DNA from: Macrotis lagotis
Taxonomy: Eukaryota; Chordata; Mammalia; Peramelemorphia; Peramelidae
NCBI RefSeq assembly: GCF_037893015.1
Contig: NC_133666.1
Coordinates: 626,536,310 to 626,600,309, forward strand
Reading direction: 5' to 3'
DNA: 64,000 nt
Part shown: piece after piece, positions 1 to 46,485 of the stretch
How positions within the stretch are numbered: the stretch's first letter is position 1
Layout: every line of letters begins with the position of its first letter
Position numbers and translations under genes: made by a program
Notes under the pieces: generated by a model
The model's database searches: none
Seen by the model: the letters and a program-made list of their open reading frames with translations, nothing else
Told to the model about the DNA's origin: nothing

Positions 1-163
1 CCCATTCTACCACCTCCATTACTGCCCTCCTGGTGTCCACCCTAACTGGGGGGGGGCCCTCAGTCAGCTCAGGAACAGAAACAGGAGCCGCCGGGACAGG
101 GCCAGGGGCCAGGGCTGGGGCCAGCCGGGCCACTAGCCCGCTCCCTCTGCCTGTCTGTCTCAG

Positions 164-959: not shown

Positions 960-2390
960 ACTCAGCTTCCAAGGTCCTGAGAGCATCTGGCCCCAGATAC
1001 CCCTTGGAGTAAGATGTTCTCAGGTCATGTGTGTGTGTCTCCTGTGTGCCTGTGTGTGAGTGTGTGTGGGTATACCTGCCTGTATGTGTCCCCACCAGCC
1101 AATCCCACATGGGTATGGGGATGGATGGAGGATTTAAAGAAAGTTCAGGCCTGGATGGTTTTGTTTCTGACTCCCTGCTTTACCTGGCTAGGCCCCAGAA
1201 AGGTCTTCATTGCCAGATCTGGGGAGAATTGGGATTGGAAAAGCTGAGGGGATGACCCTCCATTGTCCCAAGGTTTGGAGGTGGAACAGAAGCTCTTCCT
1301 TTTTAGGCAGAAGCTAAACAAAATAACTTTGACCTCTTACTGTACATTGAGAGCCTCCAATGTCTCAAAATTCCAGGGGTGATTGGGGCTGGTGTGATTT
1401 TAGCTGAGAAAGCCCATGTTTCTGAGACTTGGGAATGGGGACAGGGATATATGGAGGGACATCTGACACTAGCCAATAAGTGTACTTGGTAGCTAAGAAT
1501 TGCAGGGAATCTTGGTGCTTGCCATGGTTGGGCCTTAGATGTCTCAGAATGCCAATAATGGGTAATGATTCCTCATGATGGACCCTAGGTATCTGAAAAT
1601 TGGGGGGTTGAGGTGGGGAAGGGAAGGCAGTCTCAGCCAACGGGAGCCCTTTCTGATTATTCTGAGATGACCCCTCTTCAGACAGAAGGATGGAGAAAAG
1701 AGGCAGTAAGTCCGACCTGGCAGGGAGGCATTGGTTTGTCCCGTCCTTCTACTGAAGCCAGGTCTCTCATTTTCTTCCAATTGCAAGGTCCTTTGATGGG
1801 GCAGCTCCCACCCTCCCCTGAGAGCCTCCCCTATCCTCCCAGTCAAACTGAATTCTCTCCTTATTATCACACCCCAATTCCATTCATGATCTTAATGACC
1901 CTAGACTGAGTTCCTCTCCAGCCACCAGAGCTGGGAAGTAGGGATTCTCTTTCTACTCTCTGCTCTGAGGCTAAAATTGGGGAAAGAGAATAGTCTTAAT
2001 GTCAGGGTGTTGTCTCCCCCACCAAATGCCCTGTCCCTCACTTCCTTGATCCTGGATTTAGTGAGGGTGGGGGTAGATGTGGGGGTGGGGGAGGGGAATC
2101 ACCTTTTAGATTTAAGACCAGAGATTTTTGGTGGATAATGGAGAGGAGGTAGGGTGTTCCCTGTGACCTACACATGTGGCAGATTAGCTTTCACTCCTCA
2201 TTCCTCCCCACCAAAAAAACACAATAAAATAAGCTTTTCCCTTCCTGAACCGGCTGTGCCAGTCCCAGGGCACATGACCCTCAACAGCCCTGGCCCTGCC
2301 CCAAGGGATGCTAAAGGGGGCAACAAAGAGAGACCTCTCCTTCACTCCCAATTTCACAGCCTTTAATAAAGATCTGTTTGTATCAGAAAT
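960..2390 (+). other. PLPPR2: PLPPR2 3' untranslated region
   Basis: Non-coding sequence follows the TGA without a further acceptor, includes a TG-rich patch near 1027-1075, and ends just after an AATAAA at 2365-2370. An earlier AATAAA at 2223-2228 could give a shorter transcript. There are no interspersed repeats in this 1.4 kb, which fits exonic sequence. Confidence 0.6.
2365..2370 (+). terminator. PLPPR2 poly(A) signal
   Basis: Canonical AATAAA about 1.4 kb after the PLPPR2 stop, followed by a T/GT-rich stretch. A second AATAAA at 2223-2228 may serve as a proximal site. Confidence 0.55.
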
Positions 2391-3224
2391 ACCCCTAGCA
2401 TCTGTTTCCTCTATGCCTACAAGAATATACATGTGACTATTCTCCCTGATGTGACTAACCATTTGCCTGTGTGGTGTGTGAATAAGGCTGGAGCATGTGA
2501 ACAAGAGAGGACCCCGGTCTGGGCTGTAGAGTTTTGCTCCAGGATAAGTACTTTAAATGGTGCCTTCTTCCCTTTCAATAGCTTCAGCTCCTTTTCTTGT
2601 CCAGGGGTTCTCTCAATGCCTGTTCTAGTTATCACCCCTCACCATCAGTCCTTCAGCATTGTAGAAATCTCCTAGTACCCCTAGACCCTTGGGTCTCCTC
2701 CAAACCTCACCTCAACCCCCGTCTCAAGAAGGGAATGCACCATGCTACTGTAAGGATTTTCAGGAGGCTTTGAGGTGCACTGCAATCAGGACAAATGAGG
2801 GCAAGTGTTTTCCCTTGGCTCATTTGCTTACAGATTACATGGGGCATTCTTCCTCACTCTGGGTTTCTGTAAAATGAAGAGATTGAGTGGCAAGATCTTC
2901 AAGGTCTTTATATCTCTGAAGTTCTAGGATTGTTAGGCAGAGCTTAAATGGCTTCTGGTTTGGCAGTCCCATCCTATCCCATTCTCTCCCTGTCTCTCTC
3001 AACACACAACCTATGTTTTGGTCACATGCAGACATAGGCATCCTCAGATGCCACAGTCACAGATAGTCATGGGTTTGGGGGGCTGGGGAGGGGCAGGTGC
3101 TTGACCTGTGACCCTCTCCATGTACCGAGGGTTTCCTGGTGGGGGGGTGGAATTAGGAAGGGATTGAGGCCCATTTACTCTGACCTGCACCCTGGTAAGC
3201 AACTGGAACCCACGTGCCTCACCT

Positions 3225-3720
3225 TCCCCCCTGGCCGAGAGTGGGGGCGCAGGGGCGTGGCCGAGGGCGGAGTAGGTGGTGGAAGGGGGTGAGTGGGGCT
3301 AGGGCTAGGACTAGGGCAGCCTCCACGGGCCGGGCGGTGTCCAGCGCTTCCTGCTGTTGCTCTGGGCCGCGCCCCCTTGTCTGTACGGGGGCAACACGAT
3401 CGAGGCCGGACAGACGTGAGGGAAGGTGGGGAGCAGGGAGGGAGAAACCCATCGGAGGCCTTCCGGAGGTGGGGGAGGACTGTCAGGGGCCCCGGGCCCA
3501 GGTCCAGTCTTGCTCCCTCTACTGCAGGAGGCCGAGGGGTATTGGTGGGGGGGGTGGGGATGAGGCGGTTGCTTTTCCAGAAACACAGAGATTGGGGGGG
3601 GGGGCGGGGGCGAGGCACGGGCGGCGCACGATTCTCCCGGGATCCACAGACAAAGGGTGAGTCCGCCCCCCGGCCCTCTACTCACCCCGACCCCAATCTC
3701 CCGAACCTTGGCCCTTAACC
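3225..3720. promoter_or_regulatory. CpG island without a protein-coding gene; candidate promoter of the miR-137-like primary transcript
   Basis: A GC-rich, CpG-dense block with several GC boxes (for example gggggcgcaggggcgtgg near 3241-3260) stands out from the CpG-poor surroundings. It has no TATA box. Open frames through it (such as 3214-3660) are Arg/Gly-rich by composition and match no family I know. It ends about 1.2 kb before the hairpin at 4899, on the side where that transcript would start. Human MIR137 is also driven from a CpG island. The link to the hairpin is inference from position. Confidence 0.55.
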
Positions 3721-4898
3721 TTCAGAATCCCGAATTTCCTTAGACGCGGGCCTCTTCTCGCTCAGGCACCCGACCCCTCGACCCCCAGAAAACGCTAAAA
3801 CCAACCACTACCCCAGGCCTTGATCGCCATAATTTGGAACTCCCCAGACGCCAGTCTTTCAGAAACCCTCGGGTCCCCTGGGGTCATCAGGCAGAGGTCC
3901 CTAGAGTGAAGCCTCTCCCTATCCTGACCGCATCTCTGTCCCTGTCTATCTTATTCCGGATTCAACCACGTTTCTGTGTGTCTCCATGTCTCAGGGTTCT
4001 CCATCTCTCTTCTCCCTTCCCCCACACAGTCATAGCTCGGGCTGTTGTTCCTCCAAGAGCCCCAATCTATCTGGCCTACCCAGGAACAGTGGTCAACTCC
4101 CCCTGCCCTGCTCTGAGCCCCCAGTAGCCTTCCAGTTCAGGAAGCTGGAGCTGGGAGCTGTCCGCGGTTCTGAAGTCGACCTGAGGTTGGAGGAGGGGGT
4201 TGTGAGACTGCCCCGCCCTTGCTCACTGCTCCGCCCCCAGGGTCCCCAGGGCTTGGGGTCCCGGAGAGGGGCTGGAAGCTTTATGCTTGGGAGGAGGACC
4301 ATCAGGTCTGAAATCCTGAAAGAGGTCCGAGGTCCTGGGGAAGTATTCTTAGGGAATAGAAGAGGGGAAGGGAACTCTTGAGAGGTGGGGCTTACTCTGG
4401 GGAAGGGACTAGGAAATAATTCATTGTAGAGGTTCCACTATCGAGTTTCTGGGAGTGTGAGATATTCTTGTTCAGGGGTGAGTTAGACTGGATTTCCTCT
4501 GAGGTCCATTCCAACTCTTAGATTCTGGTTCTCGGGGTTTCAGGAGCAGGAAGAGAAAGAGTTGGTCCCTGGGGCCTAGAAGAGAATTTCCAAGGGTGAA
4601 TATCTAGTTGTCCAGTTGCTATAGGTATGGGGTCTGGTTTAGTTACCCAGAAGGTCTGTGGATCTGGATGAGAGGTCCTATGGGTCAGAGTCCTGAAGTA
4701 CCTGAAGAGTCCTGAGAGGGTCCTAAGTTAGGGACTGAGTTCTGAGGTCAGATTGGGGCTGGGTCAGAGCCAGTTTGCATTGTGATCACAGATCTGCTGG
4801 AGCCCAGAGCTGCCAATGCTGCTGCCACTGCCCACTGTGGCCAAGGAGTACTCCCTGCTCCATTGCCACCGTTCCCCAGATCCTACCTCACTGGCTGG

Positions 4899-4980
4899 CC
4901 CCCCGCGATGACGGGTATTCTTGGGTAGATAATACCAATGGCGCTGTTATTGCTTGAGAATACACGTAGTCGAGGGGAGG
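4899..4980 (+). ncRNA. microRNA precursor of the miR-137 family (miR-137 paralog, 'miR-137b'-like)
   Basis: The hairpin matches human pre-miR-137 along its length. The 3p arm (4947-4969) begins TTATTGCTTGAGAATAC and differs from human miR-137-3p at only two of 23 positions (10, A to G; 18, G to A), leaving seed TATTGCT unchanged. The 5p arm (4911-4933) begins ACGGGTATTCTTGGGTAG and differs at one position. The stem pairs GTATTCTT with GAGAATAC (one G-U pair), CGATGAC (4906-4912) with GTAGTCG (4966-4972), and CCCC (4901-4904) with GGGG (4974-4977). The loop (about 4934-4946) is the diverged part, which is the pattern of a constrained miRNA. miR-137 is a brain-rich repressor of neuronal differentiation genes. 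Human has one copy, on 1p21.3; this one lies between PLPPR2 and SWSAP1, so it is a second paralog. From memory, a miR-137b is listed for platypus or opossum, so the mature sequence may not be new. Confidence 0.93.
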
Positions 4981-7559
4981 CGCCTTCGCCGATTCCTTCC
5001 TGCCCCCCCCCAGTACCCAGCCTGTCCCAAAGGAAACATGGCCTGGCCATGGATTGAGGACCTGGGGGGTGGTGGGGTAATATGTCTTTCTAAATCCTTA
5101 TATCCCCCCTCTCCTCCCTCTCTTCCTCCTATCTCTCTATGTCTTGCTCCCAACACACATAATCTTTGTGACCTCCTAGCCTCTTTCCCTCTATCTACAT
5201 ATTTCCCAGTTCTGGACTTTTTTGTTCTGCTCCTTTGTTTTATGCAAGAAGACTTCCTGGCAGAGTTAGAGTGCATTGGTCTTGGGTATATATCAAGAAT
5301 TAGCAGTCTCTGGGAAAGAGGGGGAAATGAGCCTCTATCCTTTTCAGTATATCCCCATTAGCACATCTCTAAGAGATGGAGAGTGTCTGTGTATATATGT
5401 GTACTGGTGTGTGTTTGTGTGTATAGGGAGTGGGGGAGCTAAGCTTGTAGGCTGAGGGTTTTGCCTAGGGTTGGGTTTGTATGTAGGGAGTGGAGTGGAA
5501 GGAGGGAGGCTGAGCAAAGGCTGTATCCTGAGGGTGTCTCATGGTGCCTGGAGTAGAGGATGGGACTGGGGTGGGGTAGTGCTCTGGAGGGGTCCTGCTC
5601 AGAGAACCCTCATGGGATGTATTCATATGCTTTGCTGCTACTGCCCTGCTGCTACTGCTGTTTCCTGTTTCCAGAAACCTCCACCCACCTGAGATCTCCT
5701 AGCAACAGCCTCTCTGTGGTTGCCAGGCAATTGTGCTGGGATTGGGAGTGATTGACAGAAGGAAAATGGACAGGCTGAAGCACTGGATGATACTGGGCAA
5801 AGAATCTGAGCCAGAACCATGCCTCTTTCTCTCCTTCATCTCACAGTCCTAAGAGTATAGGAGTGCTGCTCCAGTCTCTGCAGTTCAGAGTTGAGGATTT
5901 GGGGAATGTAAAAACATCCTTCACACCTACTCCCAGTGCCAGTAACAATTCCTCATGTATCAGAAAATCACCTTCACACATATACTTCTGTTCACACACA
6001 CAATTCATTGACCATTAATGCTGGAACAACCTTTCTTGTTTCTCTACGCATATGCATATGCGTATGTGTGTATGTGTGTATACACATATTCACACATATG
6101 CAAAGTCTGAGAAAAATGCCTCCAACTTATATGGTTTCTCTAGTATGTATGATAGGATTGGAATCTGGGAAACCACCTAATCCCATGTTTTCATTTTACA
6201 GATGAGAAAACTAAAAAGGATAAGAACTTTTCAAAACCATGTATGTAGTAAATGGCAGTGCCAAAACTCAAACCTAAGTTCTCTGATTCCAAATGCAGGG
6301 CTGAATCTACCTTGTTAGAGCTATGAAAATGAATGGAACATGGCAGAAGGGCAAAAGAGTATTTATTTTTATTGCAGAAAAAAATCATGAGTCTGTACTT
6401 GTCCCTTCTCCCCACTGAATAAGCAACTGCTCTTCTCTCGGACAGGAAATAGATAGGAAAAGCATCTGCATCAAGTGGGTGCCTGCAGGTTCCTGAATGC
6501 AGGAGTGAAAAACCTGTGTGGAAAACCATGTGCATGGATAGATGATGTCCTCACACTCAGGCAGAGACATACTGCATCCTGCATATATTACTAGGCAGGC
6601 CTAAGGAACCCCAAGCCCAATCCTAAAGGAACAGATCAGGGGAATCTTGAAGGTGAAGGGTGATGAGGTTCTTTATACAACTCCCTGGGTTTGATCTAAC
6701 CACATTCTTTTACCTGAAATGAAGGCACTGTCTCTTAGGGACTCTACCCTGGGGAAAGAGAAAAAACAGTAAACCTAAGCCTATAGTTAGGGTTGGAAGA
6801 TTGGATTTCTCACCCATCCCATGTAAACTGGGGGGCTTGAGAACTTGGGTTTGACTCCCATCTCTGCAATGTTCTATTTGTAACCTTTGGAAAGCCACAT
6901 TGCTCCTTTGTGAACTCCAGTTTCCTTGGAGCTCCTAAGTACATGTGTGCATGTGTGGAATGAAGTAGGCAGTAAAACTCAGATCCATTTTTAGCTCAGT
7001 CTATGATCCTGTTGGGCCAAGGGATCCCTAATGACAGAGCTCTGCTCAGAAGTCATTTTTGCCCACCAATGAGGGAAAGAAGAAAAAAAGGGAAAAGAGC
7101 AGAGAAGTGGGAAGACAAAAAGAAGACTCTTAAGTATTGGAACTCAGAGGTCTTCTCATCCATTCCATGCCTCACAGGAAACTCTACAACAGTCATCCCA
7201 AAATGGTGAATTAATCTAATCCCTCTTCCACAAGTATAGCCCTTACAGCACTTGAACCCAGCTTTGATTGCCCCCAAGCCTGCCTTCTTCAGGCAAACAA
7301 TTTGCATATATTATAATCTATAATTCCATCACCTCTTTTAAATAGATTTATTTTGTTAGTTTCTTTCCTGAAATGCACCCCCAGAATTGGAAATAATATT
7401 ACAAATCTGATCTGACTCAGATCTCCACATCAAAACTACTGACATTCTGACATTCCCCATTCCAGACAATGTCATTATAGATGTAACTTCCTATTGCTTT
7501 AGGTTGTGGGTTTTTATGACATACTTTTGTCTCTTATCAGAACTCCAATTCAGTAAAAT

Positions 7560-8090
7560 TTAGAGGGTTTTTTTATGTTTACTGTTGCCTAGCCATTCTT
7601 CCTTTACATTGTACTTCAGTGTTTGATTTTTTAAATTCATGTCAAGGACTTTACATGTAAATTTAATTTGTCCAAATTCGGTTCATTGTTCAGTTTCTAA
7701 TTTTGTCATCCAATTTGGAATTTCCATACCAGCAATAAGTGTTTTCCGAATTAATTCAAGTCATTATTTAAAATATTTATTATATATATAAAGTCATTAT
7801 TTAAAGCACCAAGGACAGAACCCTGGGACATAAATATATTAAGGACTATTCTTTGCATCTGGTTGCTCCACCAGTTCTGAATCCAACCAATTATAAAATT
7901 CTCTAATAACCCTCCATTTTATCCATAAGTTGTTCATGAAACACTCTGTAAAGTGCTCTGCTAAAATCCAGCTACAACACTCCCCTTTTCTATCTGCTTA
8001 GTAACCCTCTCAAAAACAGAAATATAGTTAGTCTAGCATGACCTGTGTTTGATAAAGCCATGCTGGCTCTTAATGATTGTTTTCATTTAT
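7560..8090 (-). mobile_element. Ancient CR1/L3-like LINE remnant
   Basis: The text around 7900-8070 (tccataagttgttcatgaaa... tagcatgacctgtgtttgat... atgctggctcttaat) follows the reverse complement of an old mammalian CR1/L3-type LINE. It is heavily diverged with no usable frame. The family is recalled rather than searched. Confidence 0.4.
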
Positions 8091-8357
8091 ATAGTGTCTA
8101 ATGTGCTGGGCACCGGGTTAAGAACTTAACATAAATTATCTTATATAATCCTAATAAGTGCTATTATTTTACATATGAGGGAACTGAGGCAAGTGACTTA
8201 CCTAGGGTCATATAGATAGTATCGAAACTGTACTTGAACTCAGGGATTCCTATTCTAAACCTGTTGCTCTAGCTCACTGTGCACCTAGCTGACATCTACC
8301 AGAAGGCAGGTTATTACTCTATTTATTATCAAATGAAGGAATATAATATATAATTTT

Positions 8358-8373
8358 CCCACCAGGTGGCACA
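8358..8373 (+). promoter_or_regulatory. CTCF-like motif, forward
   Basis: CCCACCAGGTGGCACA fits the CTCF core consensus CCASYAGRKGGCRS at every core position. It lies outside the SINEs. Confidence 0.5.
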
Positions 8374-9832
8374 CTACTCCAGCCAGCAGCCAAGTGGTCA
8401 CAGAAATGAGGTTCCCATACTTAGGGCTCTATGACTCCATGTGAGACTTATAGAATTCATAATAGATACTCAATTTCTAGAACTCATCCTGAGTTCTACA
8501 GTAATCCAGAATATGTTTGAATATCTTCTCAATAACAAAATTACAACTTAATAAACTAAGCTCAGAGCACTCAACCCATTCCATTATTTATTCAAAATTT
8601 CCTTCCCCAATAGTAGTTGACACATATCTATATATTAAATCTCTTAGGATTACATAATCATCAAAGCTATCAAATATATTATTTATTAACTATGAAATCA
8701 GTAATAAAATCAACATAGGTAGTTATTTACTGATGACTTCTTTTCATTTCTGATAACATAAGCCCATATCACGTATTTTTCATTCCAGATGCCAAATAAA
8801 TTTTCTCCACAAGAATCTTCATCTTCATAAGGTAAAGATAATAATAGTTTTCATCAGAAAATAAAGTATCCCTCAACCTTGTTTCTAATGTCTAATTCAA
8901 TCTTATGTCTAAGACAATTTCCCTCCAGTCTCAAATCATCAATCTGAATATTATCTTCAAACTGACAGTTAAAACTGCCATTTTCACAATATTCAGTTGG
9001 ACTCTTAGGAGAGCCTCTGTATCTCTAGAGGCTTTAGAGAATGTTACAATAAAAAAGCCCGTGACTTGCTGCATCTTTAACCCAATTTTGATCTCCTCTG
9101 AGGAAAGCACAATCCTCTGTACACATGACCTTTGAGATCCCATATAGCTCTGTGGCTAAGATCCTCTGAAACTTTGTATTTTACCACATAACTTATGGAA
9201 CACAGCAAAAATTCAAGGAAAATGGTTTTAATACTTTACAGGGGATTTCTTCCTAAACTATATTCCTGAAATTCCTCTTGCACTCACAGGTGAGAATTAG
9301 GAGAAGAATACAAGGAACTAGATTCCAGCTGAGTCCTAGGAACAGTTAAAGCAAATGAAAGAGAGAATGTACTGGAAGATTAAGGTTCCCCACCCACCCA
9401 AAAGGCAGCTCTGATGCTCAATCATATCATCCATTCAGCTTCTGACTTGTGGAACTATCTAGATAACCTGTGCAACATTGACCTCAGGTATTTTTTGTCA
9501 CCATTGGATAGATTCTCAGGTTCATAGTGCACCATCAGGAGCTAATCACTCCTTGACTTGTTAGCATGGCCAACAGAAAGTCCCTCCCAGAAATTCTCAT
9601 AGGCAAAGGCAAAGAGTAAAAAAGTTCCCGGGTACAAAATTTCAACATTTCTCTCTCTCCTTTCACCTCAGTTCCATATTTTTAGTGAACATAACACTCA
9701 GTGTAGTCCCAGTCTTTTCATAGTGGGATTGGGATGGGAAAGCTTAGTGATATATACTGAAAAGAATACTGAAAAATATTGTGCTATATCTTTTTCTATT
9801 CCCCAGTTACTTGAACTAGAGGCAATTACTGG

Positions 9833-9960
9833 ATAAAGAGCTGGACCTGGAGTCAGGAAGAGCTGAATTCAAATTCAGACCCAGACATGTACTAGTTATG
9901 AGACTCAGGGCAAGTCACATAGGTTTACTCTGTCTTAGTTACCATTTCCTGGGTCTTGGA
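9833..9960 (+). mobile_element. SINE fragment (CORE-SINE type)
   Basis: It carries the diagnostic ctggagtcaggaagagctga and gggcaagtcaca blocks, but is diverged and lacks the A-rich tail. Confidence 0.55.
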
Positions 9961-9969
9961 GTGAATAAT

Positions 9970-11475: not shown

Positions 11476-11579
11476 TTTCTCTTTCTCATTGAGAGGGATA
11501 TACATAAAGAGCAATCCAAAGGATTCAGACTACTAACTCTTACCCATTCTGGAAATGATCTAAGAAGATTCCTTTATCA

Positions 11580-32545: not shown

Positions 32546-35500
32546 ATGGAGGCCCTGCGGCGGCTGCTGAGCTCTGGCGGAGAAGGCTGTGCCACCGAGG
32601 AGGGCAACACCCTTCTGCTCCTCGGGGAGCCGGGCTCCGGAAAAACGACATTATTGTTCGCGGCGGCCCTGGTGGCAGCGGGGGAGGGCCGCGGTCCCGT
32701 GCTGTTCGTGGCGCCGAGAGCCCTGCAGAGCCTGCCTCCGGGATGGAAGGCCGAAGCGGCCAGGGACCCAATGAGGCTCCAGGTAACAGCCAGGCGGAGC
32801 CCGGGGAGGGGGGCGGGGCCTGCGTGCGGTGGGGCTCTGGGATAGGGAGGAGGCGGCAGATGTGGGGCGGGGCTCTGTGACGGAAAGGCGGAACTACCAA
32901 TGGGGCAGGACTATGGGAGGGGGAAAAGCATCTGAGGGGGCGGGGCTTTGAAATAGAGCTAAATGTTTGGGGAACACAATCCATCTCCCACCTTTTATTA
33001 AGCGAACAAGGTGCCCTGACTGTATTAATTGTTTGGGAATGCAAAAACAAAAACAAAGTATCCCTCGTCTTTTTAAATTTATTATTACTTTTTTAGGTTT
33101 TTGCAAGGTAGTGGGGTTAAGTGGCTTGCCCATGGCCACACAGCTGGGCAATTATTAAGTGTCTGAGGCTGAATTTGAACTCAGGTCCTCCTGACTCCAG
33201 GGCTGGTGTTCTATCCACTGCATCACCTAGCCGCCCTGCATCCCTTGTCTTTAAGGAGATGCCAAGTCAGAGAGGGACCTAGGTAATAATATATATGCAG
33301 AACAAACCAAATCAATACAAGGCAGTTGGGGATGGGGGGGGAACTAACTCTTGTGGGGAGTCAGAAGAGATTTCTAGGGGGAATGCCTGAACTGAATCTC
33401 GATGAAGGTAGGGCGTTCTTAGAGATGAGAAAGGGGCAGCTAGGGGGTGCAGTGGATAGAGCACCGGCCCAGAGTCAGGAGTACCTGGGTTCAAATCTGG
33501 CCTCAGATACTTAATAATTACCTAGCTGTGTGGCCTTGGGCAAGCCACTTAACCCCACTGCCTTGCAAAAAAAAACAAACTAAAAAAAACCCCAAAACAA
33601 AACAAAAATCTAAAAAAAAGAGAGATGAGGAGAAAGTGCTCTTCACACAATGGAGGCTGAGTCATTAGCTTCATCTGAGATTGGCTGAACGTACTGTATT
33701 CCCATACAGTAATGTATATTGAAGCTGGAAGAGTAGATTGGGGCTACCTTGAAGAAGACCAAACAGAGCAGTTAGGATTTTTATTCTAGAGGCAAGAAGG
33801 AAACACTGGAACTTGATGAGTGGAGAAATCATATGGGAGCTTTGTGGAGGATGAATTAAAAGTGGAAGGAACTTGAAGCATCAAGCTCAATCAGAAAAGA
33901 AGCAGACCCTGGTCATAGTCTCCCTACTTAATTCTCCCCCTGTTGCTGATAAATTGCTTCGTTCAGCTTCACTAATCCCTGTGGTTCATAATTTCCACCT
34001 GTTGGAGGAGAATTCCTTCCCCCTGCTGTACTCATCCCTATACAACCTCCCAGTCCCTATCCTCCTCTGCTTTCCCTATCCACTGTGCCCTATGGAATCT
34101 CCACTCTTTGGTTAAGAAGCTGCCCTTCATCCTTTGCCTCTTCTATTCTTTCTATTCTTTTCAAGCATTAACTCAAACCTGGCTATATATATATTTTTAA
34201 ATTTTATTTATTTAAGGCAGTGGGCTTAAGTGACTTGCCCAAGGTTGCATACCTAGGCAATTATTAAGTGTCTGAGGTCAGATTTGAACTCAGGTCCTCC
34301 TGACTCTAGGCTTGGTGCTCTGTCCACTGTGCCACCTAGCTAGCTGCCCCTTCAAACCTGGCTTTATCCTGAGGGTACCAGGATTGTGACCATCTCCAAA
34401 CCTGTCCAGTCTGTTTGATACTCAGAGCCAGGAGTCATCTGCTTGGAGACCTCTCTGCACCACTGCTCAGTCACCTTTCCATTTTAAATTTCTGTCATCA
34501 GACCCTATCTAGACCTTTGTTGTTGTTATCTACTGAACTCCAGATCATGTTCTTTCCCTCCTCCAGGAGCTGAGCACTAACAACAAACCTTATAACACCC
34601 TGGTCTCCCAGTTCATTAATCTCTTCAACTCCCATCAGCTCTGACTCTCCTCTGTCAAACCACAGGGATGCTGACACCTTAATTCCATAATTTTGGCAAC
34701 TGGAGAGATTGCTGAAGTCAAGGGACATGGGGTCAAACCCTGGCTCTGGTACTTATCTGTGCCACCTTTAACAAATCACTTTATCACCCTGGTCCTCAGT
34801 TTCCTATCTATAAATGAGATAATCAATTTACTCTAAAATCTAGGATCTTTGATTTTTTTTAGGTTGTTTTTTTTTTTGCAAGGCAATGGGGGTTAAGTGG
34901 CTTGCCCAAGGCCACACAGCTAGGTAATTATTAAGTGACTGAGGCCAGATTTGAACTCAGGTACTCCTGACTCCAGGGCTGGTGCTCTATCCACTGCACC
35001 ACCTAGTTTCCCTGCTCCCCAAAATTAAAAGTTACCTTGTAATTATTTTATGATTCATGTTGACTTCTCTTTGTACCTGGCTCTTTCTTCCCAATAGCAT
35101 GTAAACTCCTTAGAGATAGGAATATATTTGCTTTTAGACTCTGAATCCCTATGCCCTAATACAATGTCTGATTGATTGGTTTATCTTTGATCTTTCCTTT
35201 TCCAGTGGTTTCTTCCCTGCAACCTATAGATAGACCAACATCTCCTTCATCTTTAAAAAAAATTTCATAACCCTGCCATCCCCTTAAATTATCCTCACCT
35301 ACCTAAATTTCCTTTGACATGTTCAAACAGAAGTGTGTCAGTCTCCTAGAAAGGTCATTAGGCCTCAGAGGTGTCAAAGTCATAATCTGCAAACCTGCCC
35401 AGTGGGGTTGATGATTCTGGTTAAAATGTAACTGGGATTAGCACAGTGCATTGAATGTTTTATTAAATATAACATTTAGTGTTAAAAATAAAAATATAAC

Positions 35501-36749
35501 TGGAAAATATTTAACAAAATTGAATTTAAAAATGCAACATAAATATGAATTTGTAGTTTTTCAAGTTGACATGTGGCCTTGAGTTGTCACTGCTGGTCTA
35601 TAGTCCTTGTATCTATTTTTTCTCTACTTCTCAACCTCTTCTAGCTTGGTTTCTGTCCCAAACACTTGATTGATACTACTCTGTCCAAAAGAGTGATGAG
35701 CTCTGTTTCTTTTTTTTGTTTGTTTTATTTTATTTAAGGCAATGGGGTTAAGAGTGACTTGCCCAAGGTCACACAGCTAGGCAATTATTAAGTGTCTGAG
35801 GTGGAATTTGACTGACTCCAGGGCCAGTGCTCTAGCCACTTAGCTGTTCCTCTATTTTTGTTCTTTTTTTGTTCTTTTTTTTTGTAAGGCAATGGGGTTA
35901 AGTGGCTTGCCCAAAGCTACACAGCTAGGTAATTATTGTGTCTAAGGCTAGATTTTGAACTCAGGTCCTCCTGAGTTCAAATTCAGCCTTAGACACAATA
36001 AGTGCTCTATCCACTTTGCCACCTAGCTGCCCCACTCTGTTTTGTTCTTAAAAAAAATATTCAGGGGGCAGCTAGGTGACTCAGTGGATAGAGTAACAAA
36101 AAATGCGAAAATATTTTGACTTTAACAAAAACCAAATAAAATGAGCATTTCTGCATTTCATATATAGTAGAACAGATGATTATATATGAAACGAGCTTGC
36201 TGTTTTTTTTTATTTCTATAATAAATTCAGCAGGTAACTTTCAAAGTGCTCCTGTTTCTCTGTGTACATTTCTTTTGTTCTCCTGTACATTTAAAAAAAA
36301 AAAGATGTTTTAATAACCCTTTTTTTGCTAATTTATTCCTTCCCCCTACCATTTACATACATACTCTATCTAACCTTTCCCCCAATTCAAAGATGTAAAG
36401 AAAAATAAAAAACAAAATACTTCACACAAATAGGCATAGAATGTTGCCTGGAGTCAGGAAGACTTAAATTCAGATCCAACCTTGGGCAAGTCGCTTAACC
36501 TCTTGTGCCCAGTAAGTGTAAAATATCCCCCCTCCCCCAGAGCTCTGTTCTTGGCCCTCCTTTCTCTACATTGTCAGTGATATATTTCCCTCCTCCCCAG
36601 CCCTTCTTCCTCCAAACTTCCCTCTTTTGTTAAGAGAACCACCATCATTCCAGTCATTCTGATGTCATCTTTGACCCTTTCTTCTCCCTTACCCTCCCAT
36701 ATCCAATCACTGAAGAGACTTCTCTCTCTAAAACATCTCTCACAGCTGT

Positions 36750-36788
<39 letters not shown>

Positions 36789-38523
36789 GTCTCTCAGTTG
36801 CATATATCTATTGCTTTTTCTAATCATTCAGTGCACCTAAGTTAAAACCCTCTTTCATTCTTGCCTGTATCAACAACAGTTTTCTAATGAGTCTCCCTGC
36901 TTCCAATCTTTACCCTCTCCAGTCTATCCCACAAAGCTGCCAAATAGTCCAAATACCCAAATCTGATCAGGTCACTTTCATATTCAGAAGTCTTCTCTTC
37001 TCCCTGTGCCTTTGAGGATCAAGTCCAAACTTCTTAGCTTGCCATTGAAAGCTCTGTGACCATTTCAGCCTTGTTATGGACTGACCAGTCCCTCCCGCTG
37101 TACCTTTGATTCCATTCCCTCCCTAGTTGAATGAGGAGGCTTCTCTTTCTTTCACTCTCATTCTTTCTCTATCATGCCTATAGTCATACTCAGATCACCC
37201 TTAGCCTTAAAATTCTTCCCTTGATCTTCCTGTCTCCTTGAGTGATTATTTCTCTACTCCTTCACTGCTAAACTCCTAGAAAGAATCATTGACATTTTCC
37301 ATTTCCTTACTCCACATTCACCCCTCAACCATTTAGGACCCCTGGTTTCTAATGACTCTGCTTGAAAAAACCTCTCATGAAGGTCACAGGTCAAATTTTA
37401 ACTGGTACATGGGATGGTCTTTTCTCAGCCCTCATCCTCCCTGATCTTTCTATGACAAAGGACATTATTTTCCACCCCTTACACTAGGATCTTTTCATGG
37501 TCTCTCTTGCCCCCAACCTGGCTGCTGCTCCTTCACAGTATTCATTTATCACCCTTCTCTCCACAGTGTCCTTCTCCTATCTCCTGGCTCAGAACTGGGT
37601 CCCCTTTCCTTCTCTCTCAGCAAACATCTGGGCTCATGAATTTATTGCTTCTGTGTAAAAGGCCATCAGATCTAGATATCCAGCCCTAATCTCTGCATTT
37701 GCTCCCATATCTCCAACTGCCTTTAGTACATCTCTATCTGAATATCCCATGAATGCTTCAAATTCAGACTGTCTTAAACTGACTTCATTATCTTCTCCTC
37801 CTCTAAACCTGCCCCACCTCCCAGTTTCCCTTTTTCAGTTGCTAGCACTACCATCCTTTCCAAAACCTTGGAGTCATCTTTGGCTTTTTCTTCTCCCTCC
37901 TGCAACCAGTCAATTGCTGAATCCTGTTAATGCTTCCTCCATAGCATCTCTCAAATCCATTCCCTTTTCTCCAGTCACACAGATACCACCCTAGTGTACC
38001 ACCCCCAGTCACTTTCATCTGGATTGGCACAGTAGCTTCCCAACTGTCTCTCTTCGGTCTCTCCACACCCCTCACTAATTTATCCTCCGCATCGTGGCCA
38101 AAATAATCTTCTTTATCAATTCCCTGCTCCAGAGAATCTATTCTTCCAGTCTTATGTCCCATTGATCTTGTCTGCTTACCCCATGTTGCAGTGAAAATGG
38201 ACCACTGGTCTTCCTCCAGCTGGATGGAGACATTTCTGTGGCAGAGGCAACTTTCCTGAAAGGTGTTTTCCCCTCATCCTCCTAGAGTCCACAGCCCCCC
38301 AAAGTGGGAATTTAAAAGCGTTTACTTCTCTCTAGCTTTCTTTCTATTTTCTGATGCTATTCTAATTTAAATTATATACCATCTCTGCACAGGTCCCTGT
38401 CTCCTAAGAAGAATGACCTTAAGATCCCTCTCTGTCATTTTTTTCCTTTGTATCTTTAGAGTCTACTGTCATGAAATACAGATAGTAGGTAATTAATGTT
38501 TGTAGAATTGAATTGTCTTGATA

Positions 38524-38579
<56 letters not shown>

Positions 38580-39734
38580 TGACTAATAGGTGTGTATGGT
38601 AAAAGATGGCATCTTAGTGTGAGATCAGCTCAATTTGTGAGAATAAAGGTATACATATCCTTGTGGCCTAGGACAAGGAATCGGATGGGTTTTAGGATCT
38701 CTGCCATAAAGAATGGTTAGGATTTGAATTAGACTGAGGAAAGATGAAAGAAGTTTCTAGTTGAATGTCTGAGATTAGTCTGAATTTGTGGGAAGTGTGA
38801 GGCAACAAGGCTAAAAGGAAGGGGAAGGCAGGCTAAATATGGCAGGGCTTTGAATACTGAGCTAAGTGGTTCAGACTTGGCTCATTAGGTGATCAGGGAC
38901 CATTGAACAGAGCTCCCTTGCAATTCTGACATTTGGGATGTTTCCCCCCTCTGGCTTGTTCCAGTAATTTTCTAAGCTGTCTCATCTCTAGTGGGCCCCT
39001 TGAGAGCTTCCTTGAGGAAGCTATCTGGTGTAAGAAAGAGCTGAGGTCAATCCTGACTAGGCAAAGAACCAAGGCAAGTCACTGAGCCATCCTCCCAATG
39101 GAGATGACGACATCACCCACCTCCCAGGATTGTGAGGATCAGGGACATCACATATGGAAAGTATGACATAAAGACTAGCTATGATAATCTTGCCCCTTTG
39201 CCTCCTGTCTTTTAGAAAATCCACTTCCTGTATCCCCCCTCCTTGCGTGAGCTACTTCAACTTCTGAGTTCTCTGCACGAGAGAGCAGGCCAGCCTCCCT
39301 CTCTCCTGCTTCTGGATGGGCTAGATGAGTACTTGGCAGAAACCTGTAGACTCCAGGCATGGGCCCACCTGGCAGCCCTCCTGGTGGACACGGTCACCCA
39401 CTTCTCAGGCCGCTTGAGCGGTGGCTGCGGACTTCTAATCACCATGCGTGGTCCTGTTGAGGCTGAGGCAGAAGCATCCTCCCTCCAGCTGGCCGTACTC
39501 CAGCGATACTTGCCCAGGTACCTCTGGCTAGAGCCTGACCCCCCAGACCCAGCAGAGGCAAGGTCCCAGGACTTAGGGCAGTGCTTCAGGATTCGCCTCT
39601 CCACCGGGCCAGGCTTCCCCAGGCAGGAGTGGTACTTGAGTTTTGGATGTGATGGTGAGATGGCAATTTCCCAAGTGACCTGCCAAGTGTCCCAGAACCC
39701 ACCTGTGAAGACTGAGACCAGCAGACCCAGCTGA
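32546..39734 (+). CDS. SWSAP1: SWSAP1, SWIM-type zinc finger 7-associated protein 1 (complete, 2 exons)
   Basis: Join 32546-32782 and 39216-39734: 756 nt, 251 aa, phase-0 intron of 6433 bp with gtaaca donor and tcttttag acceptor. SWSAP1 is a RAD51-paralog-like ATPase that pairs with SWS1 (ZSWIM7) and supports RAD51 filaments in homologous recombination, notably in meiosis. The Walker A loop GEPGSGKT is at residues 27-34 and the Walker B strand LLLLD at 109-113 (context SLLLLDGLDEYLAE). The exon junction PMRLQ|KIHF and the LQRYLP segment match the human protein. The start chosen is the first ATG in this frame. It gives an N-terminus (MEALRRLLSSGG...) about 20 residues longer than human, which starts nearer the Walker A. 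The intron is filled with SINEs, L2 and an (AT)n run. Neighbour EPOR converges from the right, as in human. Confidence 0.96.
33071..33237 (-). mobile_element. Marsupial tRNA-type SINE in SWSAP1 intron
   Basis: ttgcaaggtagtggggttaa ... gcatcacctagccgccctgc; the flanks tatccctcgtcttt / catcccttgtcttt form a target-site duplication. Confidence 0.92.
33433..33622 (+). mobile_element. Marsupial tRNA-type SINE in SWSAP1 intron
   Basis: Head ggggcagctagggggtgcag, long A/C-rich tail, flanked by agagatgag on both sides. Confidence 0.92.
34191..34352 (-). mobile_element. Marsupial tRNA-type SINE in SWSAP1 intron
   Basis: ttatttaaggcagtgggctt ... gccacctagctagctgcccc, full copy on the minus strand; cttcaaacctggct / ctcaaacctggct flank it. 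Confidence 0.92.
34853..35018 (-). mobile_element. Marsupial tRNA-type SINE in SWSAP1 intron
   Basis: ttttgcaaggcaatgggggt ... gcaccacctagtttccctgc, full copy. Confidence 0.92.
35708..35853 (-). mobile_element. Marsupial tRNA-type SINE in SWSAP1 intron, internal deletion
   Basis: ttatttaaggcaatggggtt ... tagccacttagctgttcc; shorter than full length because the middle-to-head part is reduced. Confidence 0.85.
35868..36038 (-). mobile_element. Marsupial tRNA-type SINE with an internal palindrome
   Basis: Full-length at both ends (ttttttttgtaaggcaatgg ... gccacctagctgcccc), but the segment 35935-35999 is a hairpin-forming inverted duplication not found in the other copies. Confidence 0.9.
35935..35999. 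repeat. Near-perfect 30-bp inverted repeat (quasi-palindrome)
   Basis: Arm 35935-35965 (starts attgtgtctaaggct) is the reverse complement of 35970-35999 (ends agccttagacacaat) but for a small gap and substitution. The spacer is 4 nt. Confidence 0.92.
36064..36100 (+). mobile_element. SINE head fragment
   Basis: Only the head gggggcagctaggtgactca and gtggatagagta remain. Confidence 0.7.
36590..37120 (+). mobile_element. L2 LINE fragment, in SWSAP1 intron
   Basis: The order of phrases (atgtcatctttgaccctttc, ttctaatgagtctccctgct, acaaagctgccaaatagtcc, ctgatcaggtcactttcata, aggatcaagtccaaacttct) is that of the end of L2 ORF2 in sense orientation. A (CT)n run has grown inside it. Confidence 0.75.
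36751..36797 (+). repeat. (CT)n microsatellite
   Basis: About 17 CT units, then ctgtctgtctctc, within the L2 copy. Confidence 0.9.
37400..38170 (+). mobile_element. L2 LINE fragment(s), in SWSAP1 intron
   Basis: Matches L2 ORF2 text in sense direction (ggagtcatctttggcttttt, agcatctctcaaatccattc, cttcccaactgtctctcttc, gtggccaaaataatcttctt). Very diverged. Confidence 0.7.
38526..38577 (+). repeat. (AT)n microsatellite
   Basis: An unbroken run of about 26 TA units; self-complementary and prone to length change. Confidence 0.95.
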
Positions 39735-40708: not shown

Positions 40709-43700
40709 CTAGGAACAAGCCACATATCCTGGGGGCAAAGGCTCTGGGCTGGGCTGGAGAAGGCTGTTCTCATACAGGTTGGTATAGGGCCCCTCAGGTG
40801 AGCTGCCAAGGGCCCCTTGGGAGTCACCAGAGCTATAGTCAGCTGAAATTCCAGAGTCTGAGACCCCAAGATAGAGATATTTAAGGTCAGGGGGACTAAG
40901 GGACAAGGAGGTTGGAGAGGCTCGAGGACGTAGCAGTTGAGAACTAGGATCCAGGATAGTGTACTCAAAGTTGGAGGTTGACACTTGTTCTTCCTGCTCA
41001 GGTTCTAGGGCTGAGGTTGAGGCCATGGAAGAGGAACCAGAATTGGCATCTGTTTCCACAGCTTGGGGCCCCTCTGCCTCTGGGGCCCTGCTTGCACTGC
41101 AGCCTGAGCCCCGATGGCTGAAGGGGCCCAGTCCTGGGGGTCTAGCCACTGGACTGTGGGGCAGCAGCCTGGTGTCCAGCACGAGGTAGTCGTCTTTGGC
41201 TCCCGGGGCCAGCTGGCTGGCTTCTGGCACCAGCAGAGGTTCCTCCTCCTGGGCTAGCTCGGCAGGGGCCACCCAGCGACTCTCAGAGAGTACTTCCAAC
41301 CTGGCTGGTGGCTCCTCCAGGTAGGCACCAAGTGGCCCCCACCACACGCCGGCGTTGTTCTGTCCCAGCCACAACTGAAATAATAACATTGAGCTTAGCC
41401 AGGAACCCCCCTCTGGATGCTTGGCCTCAGGACCTAACCCAGGAGCCTGGGATCTGGAGGTCTTGCAGACCTCCCCAAGAGGGAGAGAGCAGAGTCTTAC
41501 CTAGGCTTCACCACCTACCTGGAAGTTGCCCCTGTGAATGGTGAAGAGGCCCTCAAACCCATGCTCCGGACCAGGGATGCCTGGCCAAAACATTTCTTTC
41601 AAAAACCTGGGGGGGGGAGGAAAAACAAAGCTAGAAGGATCAGCCTGACCAGATGGGCTAACCCTGGAGGCCTTTGGGTACAATCTCTCATTCTTTCTGT
41701 CTGTCTCTTTTTTCTTGGCAAGGCAGTGGGGTTAAATGACTTGCCCAAGGTCACATAGCTAGGTAATTATTAAGTGGCTGAGGTTGGATTTGAACTTCAG
41801 GGCTGGTGTTCTACCCACTGTGCCACCTAGCTGCCCCCATCATCTCATTCTATAGAAGAAAAAAAAACCAAAAAACTGACACCCAGAGAGTGAAATGACT
41901 TCCCCAAGGTCACAGAGGTATCAGAACTTGGTCCTCTTGACTTCAGGACTATCCTTCTTTCCATGCAGTGCTGCTTCCCTGGGGTAGGAGAGGGGGCTCA
42001 CCTGCGTTGAGAGAGGAGGCCCAGGAGGACTAGCAAGAACAGAATGATGGTGAGTATCACAGACATGCTCAGGATCAGAGGGTCCAGTTCTGATGAGGGA
42101 AGGAAGGGGAGTATCAAGTCAGTATCCCTCTTCTACCCCTCTGATCTCAAACTGGGGCCTGGCTGCGCCCTCCTTCCCTCCCTCCCTGCTCACCACTAGC
42201 TGTCAACACTGTGACTGGCTGGGACCAGGAGCTCCAATAACCACTGTAGCTGGGCTCTGCCATCTTTGCCCTAACAGTAAAGGTATAGTGAGTGTGCCCA
42301 CGAAGGTTGTCAATAACACAGTCTGTTCTGCCTTCTTGTATGTCTATCTGCAGGATGGGGAGAGAGATGTAAGGAAGACAGGCAAGGTGGTAGGGGTAGA
42401 GGGGAAGAGAGTCCAGAGGGCTAGGGGTGGGCTCTCACTCTCTGCTCCATGGTGCCAGTTGCTTCAGAGTACTTGACCTCATAGCGGATATCCTTGGTCA
42501 CTTGGGCCATCGGGGGTGGGAGCCAGTGAAGAGCCACCTGGCTGGGGGTCTCCATTTGCCTCACTGTTAACCCAGAAGGTGGGTCCAGAAACACTGAGAG
42601 AGGAACAGGGTTAGAGGTGTGAGAGATGCAGAAAACCTGCAAACAAACAAATTGCTGGCAGTGGACTGAGGGCCCAGACCTTCCCATGGGGCCAATACCA
42701 GGCACTTGGCATGAAAGGTCTAGCCCAGCAGCTGGTGCCCCTTGGTCCTTGCTGTGCTGTAGTATAGGGAGCGGGTTGGGGCAGAACCATACCTACTTCA
42801 TTGATATAGAAGGTCCGATGGAACTCCGTGCTGTTGGGGGTGGTCATGACCTTCAGTTCCAGGGGGATGAAGCTGGAGGCATCAGAGAGGGGGAATGTGC
42901 AGGTGTAGCGAATGGTGCCCCTTCTCGTCCAGACAACCTTCAGTGTGCAGGATTTCCATAATTCATCCCTGTGCAGACACAGGCACGGGGGCAGAGGAGA
43001 GGGACACAAGGCACTGTAATCACCAAGGGTGGAGGCAGATCCCCGCTCTTCCCTCTCTGCCCCAACAAACGATCAGGGAGTGGGGAGCCAAAAGATGTGC
43101 TGGGACTCACTCTAAGTGGTAGAAGAAGCTGTAGTTCCTGGATCCCAAGCTGGCTGTCTCTTCCCAGAAACAGACCAGATCCTCCAATCTCTGAGTGAAG
43201 CACAGGGGCTTCTCTTTCTCTTCAGTCAACAACAGAGTGACTGCAGTGAGGGGAGAAGGGTGGGATTGATGAATGAGTGGAAGGGCACATCTGTGGGTAA
43301 GTCAGAAAAAAAGCTTGAACCCCCCCCACACACACACACCTCTGGCTCAGGGAAAGAAGGACTTCCTTCTACCTCACAAAGTGAGGCCTTCATCACACTT
43401 GCAATCACCCCCTATTGGGGTGCCCCCTAGCCTTGGAAATGCCAAACCACACAAGCAACAAAATGATTTCCCCAAAGTTAAGGTTACTGTCTTATCCACT
43501 TAGTAAATTCTAGTGGCTTCTGATTCAGATCAAATATACACTGTTCTCTTCAGCATTTAAATCTATTCCTCTTTTGGCCTCTTCCTAATTTTCCAGTCTT
43601 CATATAGCAGATTCCCCTCCAGAGGGGTTGCAACCCAGGCCATCCCTTTGGCCTCCTTTCAGTTCCTCACACGTGATGCTCTTATCTGACTCATCATCTC

Positions 43701-46485
43701 TCATCCATGTGCTTTTGCATTATTGGTCCCTGGCCCCTGGAATGCCCTTCCTTCCTTCCCTCCACTTCTTGGGGTCCCTGATGCCCTCCCAGGACTGCAC
43801 CTTCAGTGTGAAGCTCTTCTTCCCTCCCAAAACTACATTGTATTCATTTTTATCTATCTTACTGCAACACTTGTTTCAAGAGTCTCTACTACAGAGACTA
43901 GAGTTAACTGTAGTTTTAAGAGCCAAAATGCAATCTTGTGGAAAGAGATATTTTAGCCATCAGTTGAAGGGGAAACTATTCAGATGGAAAGTTTTGGAAA
44001 AACTGAAAAGGTGGTTTTCCAGTCATCTTTGGAGAGAAACTAGAGAATATAGACAGAGATTAGAAAGACCTTTCTTAGGGGCGGCTAGGTGGCTTAGTGG
44101 ATAAAGCATCGGCCTTGGAGTCAGGAGTACCTGGGTTCAAATCTGGTCTCAGACACTTAATAATTACCTAGCTGTGTGGCCTTGGGCAAGCCATTTAACC
44201 CCATTTGCCTTGCAAAAAACAAAAAAACCTAAAAAATAAAGAAAGACCTTTCTTGATGGAACAATTTCAACCTTTATCTTGTGAAGAGAATTTTTTTTTA
44301 TATTGACACCAAATCTAATGATTTTTATCTAGAGTTGAAGCAATGTAAATTAATTGCTGGCATGAGAAGATAAAAAGACCTCTAAAAAGCATCTTTTTGT
44401 GAAGAGAATTCTTGAAAAAGATTTTAGTTGGACCCTTGAAAGAACTATGGAAACGGGAATTAAAAAGTCACCTGTGATATGTGACTGTGATGTTTCTCAT
44501 AGCTAAAAATATTTTAATTTTTCAATTCTTCGTGCTATTATTGTTCATTTTTAATATATTTTATCAAAATTGAGTTAATCCTAGGAGAGGTATGGTTTTG
44601 ATAGAGATGAGGAAGGAGAAAGTTAATGAAATAACAGCTAATAAATGGGGGGAGGGTGAGCCCCTGAGCAATTGATTAATTAGTGAAGAAAAGGTTGGAA
44701 TTATATTAATAAATGAAAAATTATCCAGACATACCTTTATTCATAAGAATGAATATGGTGGGGGAGCGATTTAGAAGTCGCAAAGTTGATCAACAAATGA
44801 CCCTGACTGACTGCACAACTCTGAGACATGGATATGCTTATATATGTGCAAATGTTATTTCCCTGGGTGGCAAGGATTGTTTCAGTTTTTCTTCATATCC
44901 TCAGGGATTAGCCCAGTTCATGGTGCTGGGTAGAAGGTTTTGACTGATTGATTGTCAGTCTCTCAGACCCTACAGTTGCTGAACATGGGCAGATTATTCT
45001 TCCCCTGGGATCCAGACACATTTAACTCCAAGAACCCCCTCTGTATATCTTGTTTGGTTGCCCCCCCTCCTCCAGCCCATAGTGTACCCAGGCTGATAAG
45101 AAAGCCTGGATATAAGGACCTATTTCCCTTCACCCCCATCTCCAGCCCCCTCCCCTTTGCTATCAGGAACACAACCACCATCCCCACACTACTGTGAACA
45201 GTAAACCCTTCACTTCCCACAACTAGGCTGTTGGGAAGCTATAAACATCAGCAGCTGTAACTCCCACCCCTTTGGGGTCCTGTCTTGAGCTCTTAACTCT
45301 GCTCGCATCATACCTCAGACCCCACCCCCACCCTCAGCATGCATAACAGAGACCCTGGCAGACTCGTTTCCCAGTTTCCCAATGTGTCTTCAGGCCCGTT
45401 GGACCTCTGACTCCACCCTCTGTCCTTGTCCTTTCCCTGAGTCTAGGCAGAAGGGGAGGGCTAACTAAACTCAGGAATGCACCCCGGAAAAGTGAGCAGT
45501 CCATCTTCCTGCCGAGTGCTTGGGATTTGAGTCCCATTGCTCTTCAACACCATCCCTTTCATCCCACGCCTGAAAGAAGATCCCACAGGATCTTGGACTT
45601 GAGAGATATGCCAACCCCTTCATTTTGCAGAGGGAGAAACTGAGGCATTAGGAAGCTGAGTACATAAGATCATGGTCCTAATAAGTATCAGAGCAGGGTT
45701 TTCATCCCCTGGACTGTGACTCCAAACATTACTCTTTCCTCTACCTGATGATGATAATAACATTTATTGACTATGGAGTAGTGAGTGCAAGAATTCTTAG
45801 CTTCCATCTTATAGAATAGGAAATTGAGGTTCTAGGAAGAAAATTGACTTGACAAAGGTCACATAGCTACTGGTAGAGTTGGGACTGGAGCCCAGGACTC
45901 TCACTCTTCTTGCCAGTACACAGGACATCTCTCAGAAAGCCCCAAAACTGATTCTCCCAGGCTTGGAGGGGAGGAGGGAGGAAGGGAGCATATCAGGTCC
46001 CACAGGCACCCTTTCCACCCAGATAAGGCCAACAGCAGAGTTTGAGGAAAGGGCCACAGGGAATGAGGCACACCCATGCATGAAAATACAGTCACTGTTT
46101 ACAAATTTTGTGTTCCCCTTTATGCCCCTCCACCCCTAAAGTCTCCTGGTTGCCCTCTCCTCAAAGATCAGGAGATCCTGTTCAACTCTTCCCCAGTCCA
46201 AGCTGAGGGTAAGGGTGAGTATGGGGGTGGAGATGACTGTGGCTCCATCCTTGTTTCATTTTAAGCCTCTTGTACCACCCACCAAGGAAGGAGGCAATGA
46301 GTCTGAGACAGAGGGAGAACTCCCAATGCTAGGGGCTTACCTTTGTTTTCAAACAAGGGGCCTTCCAGCCCTGGCTCATGCTTCAGTTCCCATTGGGGTG
46401 CAGGGGTTGCCCAGGCAGCCCCTGCGCTGAGCAGGACGCAGAGGGACCCAATGCCAGGCCAGTGGGGGGGCCCAGCTCGTTCCAT
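40709..46485 (-). CDS. EPOR: EPOR, erythropoietin receptor (complete, 8 exons)
   Basis: Exons in transcript order: 46485-46341, 43240-43111, 42968-42793, 42593-42439, 42347-42194, 42089-42002, 41606-41519, 41374-40709; 1602 nt, 533 aa (human 508). All junctions are GT/AG and keep frame. EPOR is the homodimeric class I cytokine receptor that signals through JAK2/STAT5 in red-cell precursors. Visible parts: signal peptide 1-26; first fibronectin-like domain with paired cysteines ([15 protein letters not shown]); N-glycosylation site NYS as in human plus an extra NST; WSSWS box at 240-244; membrane helix about 258-279; Box 1 WPGIPGPE at 290-297; Box 2 LEVLSE; tail tyrosines in [34 protein letters not shown] and GYVACS. 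All eight human tail tyrosines are kept. Exons 3, 5, 6 and 7 appear to match human lengths. SINEs lie in introns 1 and 6. Confidence 0.98.
41704..41837 (-). mobile_element. Marsupial tRNA-type SINE in EPOR intron 6
   Basis: cttggcaaggcagtggggtt ... gtgccacctagctgccccc, with a short internal loss. Same strand as EPOR. Confidence 0.9.
43500..43890 (+). mobile_element. L2 LINE fragment in EPOR intron 1
   Basis: L2 ORF2 end in sense orientation: gcctcctttcagttcctcac, ttggtccctggcccctggaa, tgcccttccttcc, and the Cys/Phe-poor tail aagctcttcttccctcccaa. Confidence 0.7.
44079..44248 (+). mobile_element. Marsupial tRNA-type SINE in EPOR intron 1, perfect target-site duplication
   Basis: Full copy, antisense to EPOR, flanked by identical 15-bp agaaagacctttctt. 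Low divergence and a perfect duplication suggest a recent insertion. Confidence 0.95.
45093..45333. promoter_or_regulatory. Possible erythroid element in EPOR intron 1
   Basis: A repeat-free patch holds a GATA site (CTGATAAG, 45093-45100), a RUNX-like aaccacca near 45171, an E-box CAGCTG (45252-45257) and CACCC repeats (about 45321-45333). Motif content only. Confidence 0.3.
45740..45930 (-). mobile_element. MIR-like fragment in EPOR intron 1
   Basis: gaaattgaggttctaggaag, aaaggtcacatagctactgg and gactggagcccaggactctc are reverse MIR phrases. Confidence 0.55.

What the first reader, a model, noticed from the sequence alone, without database searches (positions are those of the whole stretch)
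4899..4980. Second miR-137 gene between PLPPR2 and SWSAP1
Seen: a hairpin whose 3p arm matches human miR-137 at 21 of 23 positions with an intact seed, a 5p arm matching at 22 of 23, conserved lower stem and diverged loop. Known: human has one miR-137 gene, at 1p21.3. Inference: this is a true paralog kept in marsupials. The changes (3p positions 10 and 18) leave targeting by seed unchanged but could alter 3' pairing and strand stability. It may already be catalogued as miR-137b in platypus or opossum.
Basis: partly seen in the sequence, partly recalled or inferred. Interest (0 to 1): 0.92.

Follow-up and report, generated by a model that had tools for sequence, protein, structure and literature searches.

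The report
Marsupial miR-137b gene beside PLPPR2
The sequence is a marsupial paralog of the gene for the brain microRNA miR-137, carrying the old form of the microRNA also found in insects and sea urchins; a miR-137b already has a name in opossum, so it is a sound but not very surprising find.

Summary
Window 4904-4974 (+) is a full-length mir-137 hairpin: Rfam RF00694, 79.1 bits, cut-off 56.7, E 7.5e-16. The 5p arm matches human (recalled) at 22 of 23, the 3p arm at 21 of 23. Contig sizes point to the greater bilby, Macrotis lagotis. PLPPR2's last matched exon lies 5.6 kb upstream, outside the window; SWSAP1 and EPOR follow.

Two corrections. The 3p differences at positions 10 and 18 are probably the ancestral state: the 3p 22-mer is identical to fly and sea-urchin miR-137, so human miR-137 looks derived. 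And it is most likely an ohnolog of the early vertebrate duplications: two S1PR-type genes lie 1.2-1.4 Mb away, while S1PR1 lies with PLPPR5 and PLPPR4 on C5, the neighbourhood of human MIR137.

mir-137a was not found in the readable genome, but neither was miR-124, so this says nothing about loss. "mdo-miR-137b-5p" is in print. Expression and the exact 5' end are untested.

The parts
4904..4974 (+). mir-137 family precursor hairpin (mir-137b)
   Evidence: Rfam RF00694, 79.1 bits, model 1-72 of 72, E 7.5e-16; fold
4911..4933 (+). miR-137b-5p arm, 22 of 23 as human (difference at position 17)
   Evidence: human arm recalled
4934..4946 (+). terminal loop region, diverged from human; UGU apical motif at 4945-4947
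   Evidence: motif name recalled
4947..4969 (+). miR-137b-3p arm (guide expected); 4948-4969 is identical to the invertebrate miR-137 22-mer
   Evidence: identity tested; the 22-mer is given as miR-137 of fly and sea urchin in passages seen
4896..4897 (+). UG at the base of the stem, 14-15 nt before the 5p arm (candidate basal Drosha motif)
   Evidence: read; motif rule recalled
4987..4990 (+). CNNC (CGCC) beginning 18 nt after the 3p arm (candidate SRSF3-type motif)
   Evidence: read; motif rule recalled
3301..3900 (.). CpG-rich stretch 1.0-1.6 kb upstream, 37 CpG, GC 0.67 and 0.63, observed/expected 0.51 and 0.76 in its two halves; candidate own promoter
   Evidence: 1-9000 scanned
2223..2370 (+). 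two AATAAA signals (2223, 2365), candidate 3' end of PLPPR2, upstream of the CpG-rich stretch
32603..39722 (+). SWSAP1 (two matched stretches)
   Evidence: tblastn with recalled human protein, E 2.6e-36 and 1.5e-10
40712..46485 (-). EPOR (six matched stretches)
   Evidence: tblastn with recalled human protein, best E 2.5e-51

Best explanation
This is mir-137b, a real microRNA gene and the partner of the canonical mir-137 gene left by the early vertebrate whole-genome duplications. It kept the ancestral animal mature sequence and survives in marsupials. It most likely works as any mir-137: RNA polymerase II makes a primary transcript, perhaps from the CpG-rich stretch at 3301-3900; Drosha and Dicer cut out the hairpin; the 3p strand (4947-4969) is loaded into Argonaute and represses neuronal mRNAs with miR-137 seed sites. 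Shown: the hairpin, its family, its place, and identity of the 3p 22-mer to invertebrate miR-137. Inferred: expression, promoter, strand choice, 5' end, targets, and loss in placental mammals (recalled: human has one gene).
For: Rfam full-length match 79.1 bits; differences from human leave the stem intact; exact 3p 22-mer equals fly and sea-urchin miR-137; PLPPR2 upstream and SWSAP1, EPOR downstream; in this genome PLPPR2 lies with two S1PR-type genes on C9 (625.14, 625.35 Mb) and PLPPR5/PLPPR4 with S1PR1 on C5 (199.26, 199.97, 202.11 Mb), matching human MIR137's neighbours PLPPR4 and PLPPR5 (passage; gene order recalled); an opossum miR-137b is named in print; a CpG-rich stretch lies past PLPPR2's likely poly(A) signals.
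Against: No small-RNA reads were available. mir-137a could not be read in this genome, so paralogy rests on synteny with the human neighbourhood, not on a tree of both hairpins. No second vertebrate genome was available to measure conservation of this locus. The opossum entry's sequence and place were not seen. PMC4669494 names only the first and ninth bases as differing between invertebrate and vertebrate miR-137, not the second difference used here (3p-18), though the 87% fly-human similarity quoted in PMC12338917 fits three differences in 23.
Confidence: 0.9

Rival explanations
1. A recent copy of mir-137a (segmental or retro-copy) that landed downstream of PLPPR2, functional or not.
For: Only one mir-137 hairpin is readable here, so the two cannot be compared directly.
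Against: The 3p arm has the invertebrate bases at positions 10 and 18, not those of human miR-137; its neighbours PLPPR2 and S1PR-type genes are paralogs of those beside the expected mir-137a place, as expected of a block duplication.
Confidence: 0.03
2. A decaying relic: the hairpin is old but no longer expressed.
For: Placental mammals manage without it (recalled); no expression data here.
Against: Both arms and their pairing are intact, with differences confined to wobble swaps and one already unpaired position; miR-137b-5p is named in opossum.
Confidence: 0.05
3. It is the only miR-137 gene left in the bilby; mir-137a has been lost.
For: No other good match to the mature sequence in 3.66 Gb.
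Against: The same kind of exact search finds no miR-124 match and only one miR-9 match (three genes each expected, recalled), so very conserved sequence is missing or withheld from the held copy.
Confidence: 0.02

Closest known systems
mdo-miR-137b (gray short-tailed opossum)
   Same: Same family and the same 'b' name in a marsupial; seen only as a table row 'mdo-miR-137b-5p, Monodelphis domestica' in PMC7913991
   Different: Its sequence and location were not seen, so orthology with this locus is inferred
hsa-mir-137 (human MIR137, 1p21.3)
   Same: Arms 22 of 23 and 21 of 23 identical to the recalled human arms, similar fold; PLPPR genes nearby
   Different: Bases at 3p positions 10 and 18 that look derived; near PLPPR5/PLPPR4 rather than PLPPR2; loop differs
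Invertebrate miR-137 (fly, sea urchin)
   Same: Mature 22-mer identical to 4948-4969
   Different: Annotated to start one base later than vertebrate miR-137 (PMC4669494); one hairpin each for fly and sea urchin in that paper's table
Zebrafish and lamprey mir-137 copies
   Same: More than one mir-137 gene per vertebrate genome is already known: a table in PMC4669494 lists three zebrafish and two lamprey hairpins
   Different: Their places and relation to the PLPPR2 copy were not examined

Membership tests
mir-137 (Rfam RF00694) | Full-length match above the curated score | tested here: met
   79.1 bits against 56.7, model 1-72
mir-137 (Rfam RF00694) | Stable hairpin with both arms paired | tested here: met
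   -24.5 kcal/mol for 4904-4974; -44.5 for 4880-5000, 2 of 200 shuffles as good
mir-137 (Rfam RF00694) | miR-137 seed in the 3p arm | tested here: met
   3p positions 1-9 identical to human
expressed microRNA gene | Small-RNA reads with fixed 5' ends on both arms | not testable with these tools
   no read data available
mir-137b as 2R ohnolog of mir-137a | Neighbouring genes are paralogs from the same block | tested here: met
   PLPPR2 + two S1PR-type genes on C9; PLPPR5, PLPPR4 + S1PR1 on C5; gene names partly recalled
mir-137b as 2R ohnolog of mir-137a | mir-137a present at the C5 block in the same genome | tested here: inconclusive
   not readable; miR-124 control also absent
mir-137b as 2R ohnolog of mir-137a | Same gene beside PLPPR2 in other non-placental vertebrates | not testable with these tools
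   the tool holds no relatives of this genome

The most novel reading that the evidence does not exclude
Marsupials run two miR-137 genes of different character: the conserved vertebrate one and this one with the invertebrate mature sequence, its own CpG-rich promoter near PLPPR2, and possibly a 3p product starting one base later (4948) as in invertebrates, which would shift the seed and widen the target set; placental mammals then lost that second output.
Probability: 0.12. Interest if true: 0.6.

Novelty: new member of a known kind. Interest (0 to 1): 0.4.

Why it matters
[quoted passage not shown] passage). A marsupial with a second copy in the ancestral form would offer a natural test of how dosage and the 3' half of the microRNA matter, and it indicates which way the human sequence changed.

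Tried and rejected
Loss of mir-137a in the bilby: looked tempting after and was dropped after the miR-124 control gave 0 matches and miR-9 gave 1 (three genes each expected in mammals, recalled).

C1:777826237 match with 3 mismatches: the seed region is altered, the 85 nt around it fold weakly (-9.8 kcal/mol) and the reversed control pattern also gave 1 match; taken as chance.

Fold energy as proof: rejected, 122 of 12782 sampled windows are as stable. Other Rfam matches within 6042-6113 (mir-297, mir-466, mir-1277) are below cut-off, and the minus-strand mir-137 match (28.8 bits) is the mirror of the hairpin and below cut-off (1-12000 only).

Literature: 'miR-137b' is in 7 papers. Passages in three show opossum, medaka and salmon names; the other 4 were seen in the listing only. 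PMC8789304 and PMC12688097, on microRNAs and genome duplication, gave no mir-137 passage in their main text (supplements not looked at). Six further names (platypus, opossum, devil and anole entries, two MirGeneDB-style names) gave 1 paper, for the opossum name. None of the papers listed (8 of 8; 20 of 22; 15 of 26; 12 of 19) is by its title about a platypus or bilby mir-137b; I made no search joining bilby with miR-137, but the bilby genome paper has no 'microRNA' or 'miRNA' in its main text.

Full report
What is there. The window holds one Rfam match at gathering threshold: mir-137, 4904-4974 on the plus strand, 79.1 bits (cut-off 56.7), all 72 model positions, E 7.5e-16 (1.4e-16 for the first 12 kb). 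The 5p arm 4911-4933 differs from the human arm at position 17 only; the 3p arm 4947-4969 differs at positions 10 and 18. The human letters were recalled. The human 3p string occurs in 23 of the 25 papers listed (41 found; listing only). The human 5p string occurs in the other two; the one passage I read prints it in a row labelled hsa-miR-128-1*, so it is no clean check of the 5p arm. The window's own 5p string occurs in none of those 25. Elsewhere in the window the best ungapped matches to the human 5p and 3p arms are 16 and 15 of 23.

Structure. Folding 4880-5000 gives one long stem, -44.5 kcal/mol, z -2.19, 2 of 200 shuffles as good. Fold energy is not itself special in this window (122 of 12782 sampled windows of 99 nt). 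The three arm differences from human do not break the stem: 5p-17 turns a G.U pair into A-U, 3p-10 turns A-U into G.U, and 3p-18 is unpaired in both. A UG lies 14-15 nt before the 5p arm, a UGU in the loop, and a CNNC begins 18 nt after the 3p arm (the motif rules are recalled), as expected of a Drosha substrate.

Which way did the sequence change? The 3p 22-mer from 4948 is letter for letter the miR-137 of invertebrates. Twenty papers hold this string or a shorter or longer form of it, by their titles on insects, molluscs, a prawn, a sea cucumber and other invertebrates (listing). The passages read give it for Drosophila (PMC12338917) and for sea urchin and sea cucumber (PMC4669494). That second paper says that vertebrate miR-137 differs by an extra first base and by the ninth base (tenth in vertebrates, G to A); this marsupial gene has the invertebrate G there. 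The paper does not name the second difference (3p-18), but the 87% fly-human similarity quoted in PMC12338917 fits three differences in 23. Parsimony says that this gene keeps the ancestral state and that the canonical vertebrate gene changed. The Rfam consensus shows G (lower case) and A (upper case) at the two places.

Species and surroundings. The held genome has 3,655,600,598 bases in 607 contigs; contig C2 is 343,853,051 bases and C1 934,355,481. The greater bilby assembly is 3.66 Gb with 609 scaffolds, scaffold N50 343.85 Mb and chromosome 1 of 934,426,298 (PMC11239497, passages). I take the species as Macrotis lagotis, perhaps a slightly different release. PLPPR2 exons lie at L003:7448-9339 (+), so the last matched coding base is 5.6 kb before the hairpin and about 660 bases outside the window. 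SWSAP1 is at 32603-39722 (+) and EPOR at 40712-46485 (-). Two AATAAA signals at 2223 and 2365 and then a CpG-rich stretch at 3301-3900 with 37 CpG lie between PLPPR2 and the hairpin. This suggests a transcript of its own, but it is not shown.

Origin. A 64-aa PLPPR2 exon found 8 places in the genome: PLPPR2 itself; C5:199.26 Mb (67% identity, taken as PLPPR5, its translation not read); C5:199.97 Mb (translated and recognised from memory as PLPPR4); two that look like PLPP-type enzymes when read (L014, L016); and three that I did not read (L015, L017, L019). Human MIR137 lies at 1p21.3, and microdeletions there also include SNX7, PLPPR4 and PLPPR5 (PMC5093957, passage; exact order recalled). 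An S1PR1 query gave 99 matches. The top one, 91% identical, is S1PR1 at C5:202.11 Mb. Two S1PR-type genes (54% and 52%) sit at C9:625.14 and 625.35 Mb, 1.4 and 1.2 Mb from the hairpin; one (60%) is at C9:153.93 and one (45%) at C9:651.57. Naming them S1PR2/5, S1PR3 and S1PR4 follows recalled human positions; the other 94 matches are weaker and were not assigned. So PLPPR and S1PR genes occur together both beside this hairpin and beside the expected mir-137a place. That fits a block duplication in early vertebrates and speaks against a recent copy.

Limits. The canonical mir-137a was not found: one match to the degenerate mature pattern, the window itself; with 3 mismatches allowed, the window plus one weak site on C1; the Rfam search (66 of 1,097,257 first-look candidates scored) and the DNA search gave only the window. 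But miR-124 gave 0 matches and miR-9 gave 1. The held copy therefore seems to lack or withhold very conserved sequence, and no loss can be claimed. The DPYD and 5p-arm searches did not complete. There is no expression evidence and no second vertebrate genome.

Known or new. A row 'mdo-miR-137b-5p, Monodelphis domestica' is in PMC7913991, so a marsupial miR-137b was catalogued before; I did not see its sequence or place. Several mir-137 hairpins per genome are also known in zebrafish (three) and lamprey (two) (table in PMC4669494). I recall a platypus miR-137b as well, unverified; the search for its name found nothing. What this adds is the bilby locus, its probable origin as an ohnolog, and the direction of change. 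The most novel reading not excluded is that the 3p product starts at 4948 as in invertebrates, which would shift the seed by one base.

Noticed in passing
   Followed up: partly
window 6042-6113: Sub-threshold Rfam matches to mir-297, mir-466 and mir-1277 (best 39.8 bits against 90), probably a simple repeat.
   Followed up: no
G000 as a whole: Mature miR-124 has no match and miR-9 only one in the held genome copy; negative results on very conserved elements in this copy should not be trusted.
   Followed up: partly
window 32427-33092 (-): A 221-codon stop-free frame on the opposite strand across the first SWSAP1 stretch; likely G+C-driven.
   Followed up: no
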